From: JADFSZ01 sp022560555 [NCBI: PVC group bacterium]
GTDB lineage: Bacteria; GCA-001730085; JADFSZ01
Assembly (NCBI GenBank): GCA_022560555.1
Contig: JADFSZ010000121.1
Location: 1-5,613 of the forward strand
Direction of reading: 5' to 3'
Length of the DNA stretch: 5,613 bases
Shown: one piece after another, positions 858 through 3,372 of the stretch
Numbering within the stretch: position 1 is the stretch's first letter
Layout: every line of letters starts with the position of its first letter
The notes under the pieces: generated by a model
What the model was told of the DNA's origin: nothing
Database searches by the model: none
What the model saw: the letters and a program-made list of their open reading frames with translations, nothing else
Translations under genes and position numbers: made by a program

Positions 858-2735
858 ATGACAGAATTTGAATTTATGGATTGGAAAAGTGAAGGGTCTG
901 GTGTCGTTGAAAGCACTAGGAGTGAGATTGATCAGACTAGGCACAATCGTGAACGGATGGATATTGTCGTTGTCGGGCATGTGGATCACGGAAAAAGCAC
1001 GCTTATTGGGCGGCTTTTAGCGGATACGGGTTCGCTTCCAAAAGGGAAGCTGGATCAAGTTAAGGCCACGTGTGAAAAAAACGCGAAACCGTTTGAATAT
1101 GCCTTTCTTTTGGATGCTTTGAAAGACGAGCAATCCCAGGGTATCACGATTGATACGGCGCGTTGCTTTTTTAAGACTAAGAAACGGGATTACATTATCA
1201 TTGACGCACCGGGCCATATTGAGTTTTTGAAAAACATGATTACAGGCGCGGCCCGCGCGGAAGCTGCTATTCTTGTCATTGACGCGAAAGAAGGTGTGCA
1301 GGAGAATTCCAGACGGCATGGATACATGATGAGCATGCTTGGGATTAAGCAGCTTGTTGTTTGTGTCAACAAAATGGATCTTGTGAACTATTCCGAAGAC
1401 ATCTTTAACAATATTGTCGCGGAATATACAGAATTTTTGGGTCGTATAAAAATGAAGCCGGAGACGTTTATTCCGATTAGTGCCCGTGAGGGTGACGGAT
1501 TGGCACAAAAATCCAAACACATGGCGTGGTATACAGGAAAAACTGTTCTTGAAGTCATGGACCATTTTAAAAAGGAAGCTTCGGAATTGAACAAGCCGTT
1601 TCGCTTTCCGATACAAGATATCTATAAATTTACCAATTTCGATGATGACCGCCGCATTATCGCGGGCCGGGTCGAATCCGGATCTATATCTGTCGGTGAT
1701 GATGTTATCTTTTTCCCATCGGGCAAAATATCAAAAGTGGCTTCATTAGAAAGTTTTAATACTCCGGTTAAAAAGCAGGCCCAAGCGGGAGAAGCCGTGG
1801 GTTTTACGCTTTCAACGCAGATTTATATTCGTCCCGGAGAAATGATGTGCAAAACCAATGATTTGCCGGCCCAAGTTACTTCTCAAATACGTGTCAGCAT
1901 GTTTTGGCTGGGCAGGAGGCCTTTGGTTAAGGGAAAACAATATAAACTTAAAATCTCGACGATGCGGACCTCCGTTTGGTTAGGCGAAATCAATCATATT
2001 TTGGATGCCTCAGAACTTTCTACGGTAAATAATAAAACACAAGTAGATCGTCATGATGTGGCTGAATGTGTTTTGCATACCTTAAAGCCTATCGCGCTTG
2101 ATATTGCCGAGAATATTGCGGCTACGAGCCGTTTTGTTATTGTTGATGATTATGAAATTGCCGGCGGTGGAATTGTTTTGGAAGCGCTCGGAAAAGAGAG
2201 TCAATTGCTTCAGAATCATATCAGTGAGCGTGACCGCAATTGGGACCGCAGCCAAATCACACCCGGCATGCGCGAGGGGAAGAATGGCCAGCGTTCGACA
2301 ATGATCGTGTTCGCGGGATCATCCGGTGTTGGTAAACGACGCCTGGCAAAAGCTCTGGAAGAGGAACTTTTTCGTGCCGGACGTCAAGTGTATTATTTGG
2401 GCTTGTCCAATACCTTTAGCGCCTTGGATCGTGGCGTCACAGAGCAAGGCGAAAGAGACGAGTACTTGCGTCGTTTGGGAGAAATTTCTCACATGTTTAC
2501 GGATGCGGGACTGATTCTGATTACGACTTTACCGGACCCTGATGATGATGATATTGAGATTTTAAAGACTTTGAACGCACCCGCGGATTTAATTCTTGTG
2601 AACGTCGGTGAAAACCGATTTCAAAAGATCAAAACGGATGCCGATTTCCCGAGCGGTGTCAGTGTCGAATCAGCTGTGGCGGATATCCAAGCCCTTCTTC
2701 AAAAGCGCAATGTTCTTATGGAGTATTATCTTTGA
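858..2735 (+). CDS. cysN: Sulfate adenylyltransferase subunit 1 (CysN) GTPase fused to a degenerate APS kinase-like domain
   Basis: GTPase subunit that drives APS synthesis by CysD. The 625-aa product has a 33-residue N-terminal extension and then an EF-Tu-like GTPase domain: G1 GHVDHGKST (40-48), GITID with the G2 threonine (95-99), G3 DAPGH (116-120), G4 NKMD (171-174) and G5 SAR (208-210). Beta-barrel domains follow at about 245-450. Residues from about 480 form an APS kinase (CysC)-like P-loop domain, as in CysNC/NodQ fusions. Here the P-loop reads GSSGVGKRR (487-495), with Arg in place of the Mg-binding Ser/Thr. The usual DGDNxR loop is replaced by [12 protein letters not shown] (515-526), and no KGLY-type motif is seen. 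Kinase activity is therefore doubtful (inference). The ATG at 858 is supported by GGAG at 848-851, six bases upstream. GHVDHGKS resembles elongation factors, whereas E. coli CysN has GSVDDGKS, but the cysD neighbour and overall sequence favour CysN. Confidence 0.9.
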
Positions 2736-2740
2736 GTAGA

Positions 2741-2840
2741 TTCAATTTTACTTTCACACAGTATCTCTGCTAATCGCTACTCAACCATCCTCACAAGTTC
2801 GTATCTATGTGCTCCTATCATGCTCAATCTATTCTAATAT
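2741..2840 (+). terminator. Possible Rho-dependent termination region after cysN
   Basis: No hairpin followed by a T-run is visible after the cysN stop. Instead, these 100 bases hold 28 C and only 8 G, with many pyrimidine-C steps, which is the C-over-G imbalance known from Rho loading (rut) sites. This is the whole non-coding stretch between cysN and the regulator's promoter, so termination of the cys transcript here is plausible. The assignment rests on composition only, and read-through cannot be excluded. Confidence 0.3.
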
Positions 2841-2857
2841 TCTCAAGAACTTGAGAA
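2827..2857 (+). repeat. Left arm of a 31-bp imperfect inverted repeat flanking the regulator gene
   Basis: This segment is the reverse complement of 3156-3186 at 28 of 31 positions; the differences are at repeat positions 13, 24 and 27. The outer 12 bases match perfectly (ATCTATTCTAAT). The inner part contains the palindrome at 2840-2857. The arm ends with the -35 box of the regulator promoter inside it. It may be a regulator-binding site or one end of a small mobile or formerly mobile element; no target-site duplication was found. Confidence 0.8.
2840..2857. promoter_or_regulatory. Putative operator palindrome
   Basis: TTCTCAAGAACTTGAGAA is a perfect 8-2-8 inverted repeat. Its right half contains the -35 hexamer of the promoter for the winged-helix gene, so a dimeric protein bound here would block RNA polymerase. 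Winged-helix regulators of this size commonly bind such palindromes and repress their own genes; binding by this particular protein is inferred. A diverged copy (TTCTTAAATTCTTGAGAA) lies at 3156-3173. Confidence 0.6.
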
Positions 2858-2879
2858 CACATGTCAAATAGTTTATAAT
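2851..2879 (+). promoter_or_regulatory. Sigma70-type promoter of the winged-helix gene
   Basis: TTGAGA (2851-2856) and TATAAT (2874-2879) are separated by 17 bases, which is close to the consensus for a housekeeping promoter. Transcription would begin around 2885-2888, at or within a few bases of the ATG at 2888. The -35 element is embedded in the operator-like palindrome. Confidence 0.75.
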
Positions 2880-2887
2880 GCTGGATT

Positions 2888-3184
2888 ATGAAAAAGATTA
2901 ATAGGGGAATCGGTACAAGGAATTATCGAAAGCTTGAGCGGGTGGTTAAGGGATTTTCAAATCATCGACGAATAGAGATCCTGGAGTTGATTGCGAGAGA
3001 ATCCGAGATTTCAGTCCGAGAAATATCTAGCGCGCTCAATACTAACTACAAAACTATCTCCGAACATATACGTCGTATGACCATTGCCGGACTCATTATC
3101 AAACGCTCCGCAGGGAGCAGCGTTCGCCATAAAATCACACCACGTGGTGAAACTATTCTTAAATTCTTGAGAACATTAGAATAG
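2888..3184 (+). CDS. Small ArsR-like winged-helix transcriptional regulator
   Basis: A 98-aa basic, cytosolic DNA-binding protein. Residues 14-37 (including VVKGFSNHRRIEILELIA) match the first helices of ArsR-type winged-helix proteins. ISVREISSAL (41-50) and NYKTISEHIRRM (53-64) form the helix-turn-helix, IKRSAGSSVRHKITPRG (71-87) the wing, and a C-terminal helix ends the chain. There is no cysteine, so the classical CxC metal sensor of ArsR/SmtB is absent and no ligand domain is visible; the signal is unknown. No clear Shine-Dalgarno site precedes the ATG, and the promoter predicts a start of transcription almost at the ATG, so the message is probably leaderless. The gene lies inside a 31-bp inverted repeat whose right arm covers its last nine codons and stop. 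Autoregulation is likely; control of the cys or thi genes is possible but unproven. Confidence 0.85.
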   Translation: MKKINRGIGTRNYRKLERVVKGFSNHRRIEILELIARESEISVREISSALNTNYKTISEHIRRMTIAGLIIKRSAGSSVRHKITPRGETILKFLRTLE

Positions 3185-3186
3185 AT
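3156..3186 (-). repeat. Right arm of the 31-bp imperfect inverted repeat
   Basis: Reverse complement of 2827-2857 at 28 of 31 positions. It overlaps the end of the winged-helix coding region, including its TAG stop (3182-3184), and ends 37 bases before the -35 box of the thiamine promoter. The 10-mer CTTGAGAACA (3166-3175) also occurs in direct orientation at 2850-2859, because the palindromic core makes the two sites similar in both orientations. Its conservation within coding sequence suggests a DNA-level function. Confidence 0.8.
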
Positions 3187-3223: not shown

Positions 3224-3253
3224 TTGACAAGAGATTGGGTAATTAAGTACAAT
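3224..3253 (+). promoter_or_regulatory. Sigma70-type promoter of the thiamine operon
   Basis: TTGACA (3224-3229), a perfect -35 consensus, and TACAAT (3248-3253) are separated by 18 bases. The expected transcription start near 3260 falls immediately before the TPP aptamer, as is usual for riboswitch leaders. A short direct repeat (AGAGATTAGGGT at 3200-3211, AGAGATTGGGT at 3230-3240) lies upstream of and within the promoter. Confidence 0.8.
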
Positions 3254-3260
3254 TAAACCC

Positions 3261-3352
3261 AAATGGGGAGCCTGAACAGAAAGGCTGAGAAAGTGGTGTT
3301 TCCGCTGACCCTCGTGACCTGATCTGGGTAATGCCAGCGTAGGGATTCATTT
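3261..3352 (+). promoter_or_regulatory. TPP riboswitch (THI element) aptamer
   Basis: Binds thiamine pyrophosphate in the nascent mRNA and represses the operon when the vitamin is plentiful. The conserved cores are present: GGGGAGCC (3265-3272), GGCTGAGA (3283-3290), TGACC (3306-3310), and GACCTGATCTGGGTAATGCC (3316-3335) followed by AGCGTAGGGA (3336-3345). The P1 helix can form between AAATG (3261-3265) and CATTT (3348-3352). An accessory hairpin is predicted at 3292-3306 with loop TGTTT. An antiterminator and terminator follow, so control is probably at transcription termination. Confidence 0.95.
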
Positions 3353-3372
3353 TTAACTCGTTGAACCTCTAT
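3339..3372 (+). promoter_or_regulatory. Predicted antiterminator helix of the TPP riboswitch
   Basis: GTAGGGATTC (3339-3348), the 3' end of the aptamer core, can pair with GAACCTCTAT (3363-3372), the left side of the terminator stem, at nine of ten positions including two G-U pairs. Forming this helix destroys both the aptamer's closing region and the terminator, giving the mutually exclusive on and off states expected of a termination-type riboswitch. Derived by hand pairing. Confidence 0.65.

What the first reader, a model, noticed from the sequence alone, without database searches (positions are those of the whole stretch)
2827..3186. 31-bp inverted repeat bracketing a lone winged-helix gene
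2827-2857 and 3156-3186 are reverse complements at 28 of 31 positions, and the 360-bp unit contains only the regulator and its promoter. The right arm is conserved although it also encodes the last nine residues and stop codon of the protein. Two readings are open: a pair of operators allowing DNA looping over the gene, or the ends of a compact element (a regulator cassette with terminal repeats) inserted between the cys and thi loci. Short CATG matches continue on both sides after a four-base interruption.
Basis: seen in the sequence. Interest (0 to 1): 0.68.

Follow-up and report, generated by a model that had tools for sequence, protein, structure and literature searches.

The report
Regulator gene bracketed by its operators
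A tiny DNA-binding regulator gene carries a copy of what is very probably its own binding site at each end, and in related bacteria with very small genomes the same short palindromes turn up elsewhere, even spliced in frame into conserved genes, so the regulator and a scattered DNA repeat look like one linked system.

Summary
The repeat is real (28/31). Each arm is a decayed copy of one 28-bp palindrome: the left overlaps the -35 box, the right encodes the last nine residues of the winged-helix protein.

The nearest homologues found (43-67% identity) lie in Patescibacteria and in small-genome MAGs of untold group. Most have the same two-sided layout: 5' and 3' flanks of one gene share a 28-mer at 24/28 or better in 48 of 62 genes, against 32 of 372 cross-gene controls. 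Operator similarity tracks residues 53-64, the predicted recognition helix, and little else. Both arms are therefore very probably sites of the encoded protein; the window gene looks horizontally acquired.

Two tsaD genes hold 30-bp palindrome inserts, and 7 of 10 tested host-gene sites fit the resident regulator (p = 0.00025 overall). This resembles REP-RAYT and Rickettsia palindromic elements, with a non-catalytic regulator in place of a transposase. Autorepression is inferred; looping is unsupported (no helical phasing); how the palindromes move is unknown. Nine searches of an open-access library showed no description of it.

The parts
2888..3184 (+). 98-aa winged-helix (ArsR/SmtB-MarR fold) regulator gene, no cysteine; the ATG begins nine bases after the end of the -10 box, so the mRNA is probably leaderless (inferred)
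   Evidence: promoter position; absence of Cys read from the sequence
2827..2857 (.). left arm; 28-bp palindromic site 2831-2858 (13-2-13), overlaps the -35 hexamer: upstream operator (binding inferred)
   Evidence: homologous sites in relatives
3156..3186 (.). right arm; 28-bp palindromic site 3155-3182, which also encodes residues 90-98 (ILKFLRTLE): downstream operator (binding inferred)
   Evidence: same position relative to the stop (centre -16.5) in 23 of 60 genes, the window's included
2851..2879 (+). promoter TTGAGA-17-TATAAT (11 of 12), -35 inside the left palindrome
   Evidence: consensus match only
3044..3079 (+). codons 53-64, the segment whose changes track operator changes (predicted recognition helix 54-66)
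3140..3178 (+). codons 85-97, predicted C-terminal helix, partly encoded by the right operator
   Evidence: and sequence

Best explanation
The window holds a probably horizontally acquired member of a family of small ArsR/SmtB-type winged-helix regulators found mainly in Patescibacteria and other small-genome bacteria. Most genes of the family are bracketed by two copies of their own palindromic binding site. The upstream copy overlaps the promoter, so a bound dimer should shut off its own transcription (inferred). The downstream copy lies on the last codons or just after the stop and is a second binding site; I think it works as a roadblock or boundary at the end of the gene (inferred, the weakest step). 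The same 28-30-bp palindrome also exists as solitary copies, many of which fit the resident regulator. They sit behind stop codons and in frame inside conserved genes, as 30-bp inserts in at least two tsaD genes. So the palindrome behaves as a scattered REP-like element tied to a regulator and not to a transposase. Shown by sequence: two-sided layout, co-variation, dispersal, inserts. Not shown: binding, autorepression, what copies the palindromes. In the window genome itself only one solitary copy was found.
For: Two-sided palindromes: score >=12 at the 5' end in 25 of 62 genes, at the 3' end in 25 of 62, both in 14 of 62, against 0.8% and 0.6% of 1240 control windows. 5' and 3' regions of the same gene share a 28-mer at >=24/28 in 48 of 62 genes, cross-gene in 32 of 372; at >=26/28, 33 of 62 against 9 of 372. 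Operator similarity follows protein residues 53-64 (partial r 0.61, 0 of 2000 permutations, 50 genes); 12-residue stretches that end by residue 54 or begin at 60 or later give 0.19 or less, those overlapping the helix more fall in between. 3' site at one fixed register from the stop in 23 of 60 genes. Palindrome in 10 of 286 genomes of the phylum of G060 with reversed control 0; 5 of those 10 are among the 13 of 286 with the protein at E<1e-20 (p 1.9e-5; 2.1e-4 without the centre genome G060). Thirty-bp inserts in tsaD of G363 and G369 against homologues without them. Ten host-gene sites match resident regulators' sites better than permuted ones (260 against 222.8 summed matches, p 0.00025). 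The window protein branches inside the clade of these regulators.
Against: No binding or expression data. The co-variation test is not corrected for relatedness. 14 of 62 genes do not reach 24/28 between their ends; L040 has no 3' site. Both G367 host sites and the one in G363 do not fit the resident regulators found. Half of the 10 palindrome-bearing genomes showed no strong regulator. In the window genome the palindromes are imperfect and only three places were found. MiaA and TatD sites show no clean insertion: same length or one or two residues' difference. The clade that holds the window has weak inner support and two stray long-branch outgroup rows.
Confidence: 0.72

Rival explanations
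1. Terminal inverted repeats of a mobile cassette that moves as a 360-bp unit, cut by an enzyme supplied in trans.
For: Gene bracketed by matching repeats, patchy distribution (21 of 286), several paralogues per genome, probable transfer across phyla; the layout equals the REP-RAYT unit (PMC2817692 passages). The window genome has a separate RAYT-like unit on contig C27.
Against: No second copy of the unit in the genome; only winged-helix families and no nuclease or transposase domain in the protein; many solitary palindromes, 56 against 80 near a regulator gene in the pooled loci; the outer arm extensions differ between the two ends of one gene, unlike terminal repeats. Target duplications were not looked for.
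Confidence: 0.13
2. The palindromes are bidirectional transcription terminators; similarity to each other is only shared terminator design.
For: Solitary sites lie within -45..+90 nt of a stop in 24 of 56 cases against 15% of random positions; the three Patescibacteria or MAG sites folded have z about -10 to -12, and several in G063 carry A/T tracts.
Against: Core sequence tracks the recognition helix, which a terminator would not; sites inside coding sequence; the window sites are weak hairpins (z -1.4 and -0.9) and no terminator was called there.
Confidence: 0.07
3. An ordinary autorepressor with two operators that loops DNA, the scattered copies being its regulon.
For: Two operators about 300 bp apart around one promoter; solitary sites tend to fit the resident regulator.
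Against: No significant helical phasing over 43 distances (R 0.20, p about 0.17 at 10.5 bp); solitary sites are not enriched before start codons (4 of 56 only-before-start, random 6%; 6 more are both after a stop and before a start, random 3%); 30-bp inserts in tsaD are odd for a regulon.
Confidence: 0.06
4. The left arm is only the relic of an inverted duplicate of the gene's 3' end, without function.
For: Read on the minus strand the left arm encodes LKFLRILE-stop, nearly the protein's C terminus (read from the sequence).
Against: The two-sided layout recurs in dozens of divergent homologues with other sequences.
Confidence: 0.02

Closest known systems
ArsR/SmtB (and MarR-fold) autorepressors with 12-2-12 operators (e.g. 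SmtB, CzrA, AzuR)
   Same: Fold, size, palindromic 13-2-13 site overlapping the -35 box (12-2-12 repeat of the AzuR target: PMC8790569 passages).
   Different: No cysteine; a second site at the gene's 3' end encoding the protein's own tail; operator scattered as a repeat and inserted into genes in relatives.
REP elements with REP-associated tyrosine transposases (RAYTs)
   Same: Single gene flanked by two inverted palindromes, with palindromes of that kind dispersed in the genome (PMC2817692 abstract and passages).
   Different: Protein is a winged-helix regulator without a transposase domain; 1-12 copies in the six positive genomes instead of usually over 100.
Rickettsia palindromic elements (RPEs)
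   Same: Palindromes inserted in frame into unrelated conserved genes (PMC10969869 passages).
   Different: 28-30 bp instead of about 150 bp; each type tied to a regulator gene that carries it at both ends. In-frame copies seen in relatives, not in the window genome.
AspA of plasmid pNOB8 (winged-helix centromere-binding protein)
   Same: Fold match (Z 13.8, rmsd 2.1 over 77 residues; sequence E 5e-6); binds a palindrome (recalled).
   Different: No ParA/ParB partner in the unit; patchy, multi-paralogue distribution does not suggest a partition system.

Membership tests
ArsR/SmtB transcriptional repressors | winged-helix fold of the family | tested here: met
   Pfam HTH_5 31.8 bits against cut-off 22; CzrA, SmtB, HlyU relatives; three other wHTH Pfam families also pass their cut-offs and MarR gives the best fold Z
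ArsR/SmtB transcriptional repressors | NCBIfam metalloregulator model cut-off | tested here: not met
   NF033788 45.5 bits, cut-off 55
ArsR/SmtB transcriptional repressors | cysteine metal-sensing site | tested here: not met
   no cysteine in the 98-aa sequence
ArsR/SmtB transcriptional repressors | palindromic operator-like site at the promoter | tested here: met
   13-2-13 site overlapping -35, two-sided in relatives
ArsR/SmtB transcriptional repressors | DNA binding and repression | not testable with these tools
   indirect only: co-variation
REP-RAYT | gene flanked by two inverted palindromes | tested here: met
REP-RAYT | tyrosine (Y1) transposase domain | tested here: not met
   19 families listed, nearly all HTH, none a transposase
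REP-RAYT | high copy number of dispersed palindromes | tested here: not met
   1-12 matches per positive genome, 1-7
REP-RAYT | conserved tetranucleotide tag beside the palindrome | not tested
   no systematic test was made
Rickettsia palindromic elements | in-frame palindromic inserts in unrelated genes | tested here: met
   in relatives: tsaD +10 codons, mutY +6 aa against the best PDB match; not seen in the window genome
Rickettsia palindromic elements | length about 150 bp | tested here: not met
   28-30 bp core
Insertion sequence or cassette with terminal repeats | transposase in the unit | tested here: not met
Insertion sequence or cassette with terminal repeats | target-site duplication or empty site for the gene | not tested
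   the one same-phylum genome held has no such gene, but its cys-thi locus was not aligned
Looping operator pair (lac/gal type) | operator spacing in helical phase | tested here: inconclusive
   no significant phasing over 43 pairs; at 300 bp phasing may not be needed

The most novel reading that the evidence does not exclude
A class of dispersed DNA element in which the moving unit is the operator of a small regulator: the winged-helix gene carries its operator at both ends (writing it into its own last codons), and copies of that operator scatter through the genome, insert in frame into conserved genes such as tsaD, and are kept in step with the resident regulator's changing specificity. No transposase is encoded in the unit.
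Probability: 0.45. Interest if true: 0.86.

Novelty: new variant of a known kind. Interest (0 to 1): 0.74.

Why it matters
It would link two things normally treated apart, a transcription factor's operator and a scattered genomic repeat, and give a natural series of dozens of regulator-operator pairs with diverging specificity, usable for reading the DNA-recognition code of a minimal winged helix. It would also give Patescibacteria and similar small-genome bacteria a palindromic repeat with an obvious protein partner, and it makes a testable question of how 30-bp palindromes enter conserved genes without a transposase of their own.

Tried and rejected
No relative of the protein was found in viral contigs, plasmids or phages at the sensitivity used. 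Helical phasing for looping was not found. A fixed -10 position relative to the palindrome centre was looked for: 29 of 50 genes have a hexamer of at least 5/6 downstream, but at many spacings, so it is not used as evidence. The first scan for palindromes used a wrong pattern and showed none; corrected. The script chose a wrong register for the window's left site (13/28); the direct comparison is. One search's own cross-gene control was biased by how sites were picked; one search replaces it. Presence of a palindrome in tsaD is as scattered on the tsaD tree as shuffled labels (8 changes, at least 3 forced by starred branches), so one old insertion with losses and repeated insertion cannot be told apart. 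Three weak homologues in other genomes (E about 1e-13) were scanned in an 800-nt stretch each: two had no palindrome above threshold, one (L263) had one. The idea that solitary sites mark promoters of a regulon was dropped. Mis-binning of the window contig was considered: the contig carries sulfate-assimilation and thiamine genes (Pfam), unusual for Patescibacteria (recalled), and a third site lies on another contig of the same bin. Ascertainment: the 'inside gene' count is inflated by loci fetched through tsaD and tatD, and the site list there covers only loci already fetched; the tsaD table covers 30 fetched loci of the 39 of 41 genomes with a match. The group of G059's family, which holds the tsaD, tatD, miaA and mutY cases, is not told; I call it small-genome (0.5-1.3 Mb) and not Patescibacteria.

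Full report
Observation. The 31-nt inverted repeat is there as described (28/31) and is well above chance (genome-wide BLAST E 5.2e-5 for each arm; maximum 24 in 200 mononucleotide shuffles). Each arm is also a palindrome. In a common 28-bp register the left site is 2831-2858 and the right 3155-3182, each with one well-kept half and one decayed half, which is why they look like an inverted pair. The left site overlaps the -35 box of an 11-of-12 promoter match (TTGAGA-17-TATAAT, 2851-2879), and the ATG at 2888 begins nine bases after the -10 box, so the mRNA is probably leaderless (inferred). The right site encodes residues 90-98 of the 98-aa protein.

Source genome. A 23-base pattern with up to three mismatches found these two sites and one further copy (C27:5717-5758), each on both strands, plus one three-mismatch match on C187; the reversed control gave none. 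The C27 copy lies between a 93-aa ORF and a gene with MFS, acyltransferase and AMP-binding domains. It folds as a strong hairpin (z -5.7), the window copies weakly (z -1.4 and -0.9). No second 360-bp unit was found.

Relatives. The protein has no match in the one same-phylum genome held (E<=1e-3); of the other 385 genomes only 3 reach E<=1e-12, weakly (about 1e-13). Its nearest relatives, 43-67% identical, are in six MAG records, three named Patescibacteria or Levybacteria and three only 'bacterium'. Four of the six loci (L037, L038, L039, L041) carry perfect or nearly perfect palindromes of 38-46 bp at both gene ends; L040 has only the 5' site, and L042 appears to be a truncated gene. In the phylum of G060 (a Patescibacteria MAG) the protein is in 21 of 286 sampled genomes at E<=1e-10 (13 at E<1e-20), in the family of G063 in 8 of 11, in that of G059 in 16 of 41 (its phylum is not told, genomes 0.5-1.3 Mb). 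A tree puts the window inside this clade (SH-aLRT 98 for the clade, weak inside; two long-branch outgroup rows stray into it). I read this as horizontal acquisition.

Both arms are sites of the encoded protein. Of 64 distinct regulator genes 62 had enough flank. Palindromes of score 12 or more are about 50-fold enriched at either end over control windows (25 of 62 at each end, 14 at both; 0.8% and 0.6% of 1240 controls). The 5' and 3' flanks of one gene resemble each other far more than those of different genes (>=24/28: 48 of 62 against 32 of 372). The 3' site sits at a fixed register, centre 16.5 nt before the end of the stop codon, in 23 of 60 genes, and at +6.5 in 11: in the first group the last codons of the gene are the operator (such as ILxFLRTLE-stop, LVFCKKLE-stop). 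Across 50 genes (those whose two sites match at 20/28 or more, plus the window), operator similarity tracks protein similarity best at residues 53-64, partial r 0.61, no permutation of 2000 as high; stretches ending by residue 54 or beginning at 60 or later give 0.19 or less. That is the predicted recognition helix, 54-66 (model pLDDT 80.8). Residues after 84 were left out because the operator can encode them. The test does not correct for relatedness, but the contrast between segments of the same proteins is hard to explain otherwise.

Solitary copies. With the framework ATTCTNNNNTTCTNNAGAANNNNAGAAT, 10 of 286 genomes match and the reversed control is 0; 5 of the 10 are among the 13 with a strong match to the protein (hypergeometric p 1.9e-5; 2.1e-4 when the centre genome is left out), the other 5 are not. 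A second type (TTTTGCAAAA centre, up to three mismatches) is in 12 of 41 genomes of the G059 family, control 0. Of 56 solitary sites in the loci fetched, 24 lie within -45..+90 of a stop codon (random 15%), 18 inside ORFs (random 71%), 4 only before a start (random 6%), 10 elsewhere (gene calls are simple ORF picks). Many have symmetric, locus-specific arm extensions. At a site behind an ORF that looks like rlmH (named by eye), the arms differ between G059 and G061 by a paired change (CACC/GGTG against CAAC/GTTG), as expected for hairpins under selection or for palindrome correction by template switching (recalled mechanism).

Inside genes. The palindrome occurs in one reading frame in TatD, MiaA, MutY and TsaD (families confirmed). 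Against PDB homologues MiaA and TatD show no insertion, TsaD 11-12 and MutY 6 extra residues. In the G059 family the same TsaD loop holds palindromes of several types in 9 of 30 genes (score 8.5 or more, next best 7). In G363 and G369 it reads as a 30-bp (10-codon) insert, CATTCCAACATTCTGCAGAATGTTGGAATG and CATACCAACAAACTTGAGAATGTTGGTATG, where G374 and others have none. For ten TsaD and TatD sites in genomes with known regulators, the match to the resident regulator's own sites beats permuted genomes (p 0.00025); the exceptions are both G367 sites and the G363 site.

Mechanism. Inferred: a dimer binds the left arm and blocks RNA polymerase (autorepression). The right arm is a second site whose role I take to be a roadblock or boundary at the gene end; looping has no phasing support. 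The palindrome has become a dispersed element whose sequence is kept in step with the regulator. What copies it is unknown; trans-acting Y1 enzymes are a candidate. The source genome has an unrelated RAYT-like gene on C27 (Pfam Y1_Tnp above cut-off, NCBIfam RAYT model 55.9 bits below its cut-off of 80) flanked by its own hairpins, which suggests the enzyme class is present there but not that it acts on these sites.

Known kinds. ArsR/SmtB repressors bind 12-2-12 repeats, in AzuR's case over the -35 (PMC8790569 passages). RAYT genes are described as always flanked by two inverted REPs (PMC2817692 abstract and passages). Rickettsia palindromic elements enter genes in frame (PMC10969869 passages). 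The present system shares features with each and fails a defining feature of each. Nine literature searches listed nothing on palindromes tied to winged-helix genes in Patescibacteria; I saw listings and opened three papers for passages only, and the library lacks most subscription papers and all preprints.

Noticed in passing
window 3224-3362: TTGACA-18-TACAAT promoter match directly followed by a TPP riboswitch (63.8 bits) ahead of the thiS-thiG genes; 37 bp separate the right arm from this promoter.
   Followed up: partly
L006 110-852 (G000 C27): A REP-associated tyrosine transposase-like gene (171-815) flanked by two nearly identical 33-35-nt hairpins: a REP-RAYT-like unit about 5 kb from the solitary palindrome.
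   Followed up: partly
L107, L092, L093, L095, L098, L104, L108: A second, more distant group of winged-helix genes has palindromes with an ATTCGNNCGAAT-like centre near the gene; L107 has them on both sides.
   Followed up: no
L109 1064, 1312, 2540, 3030 (G295 C2): Four nearly identical ATTCTATCATTCTATAGAATGATAGAAT-type palindromes within 2 kb, with no family member seen beside them.
   Followed up: no
TsaD loci L200-L229: One loop of TsaD in this family is a recurrent home of palindrome-encoded peptides such as HSNILQNVGM and SSVLQNTAI.
   Followed up: partly
L042 / L078 (Levybacteria MFNJ01000023.1): Only the second half of the winged-helix gene was matched, with its 3' palindrome: apparently a decayed copy.
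   Followed up: no
window 858-2735: CysN-type protein whose C-terminal APS-kinase-like part matches only positions 2-97 of 152 of the family model.
   Followed up: no
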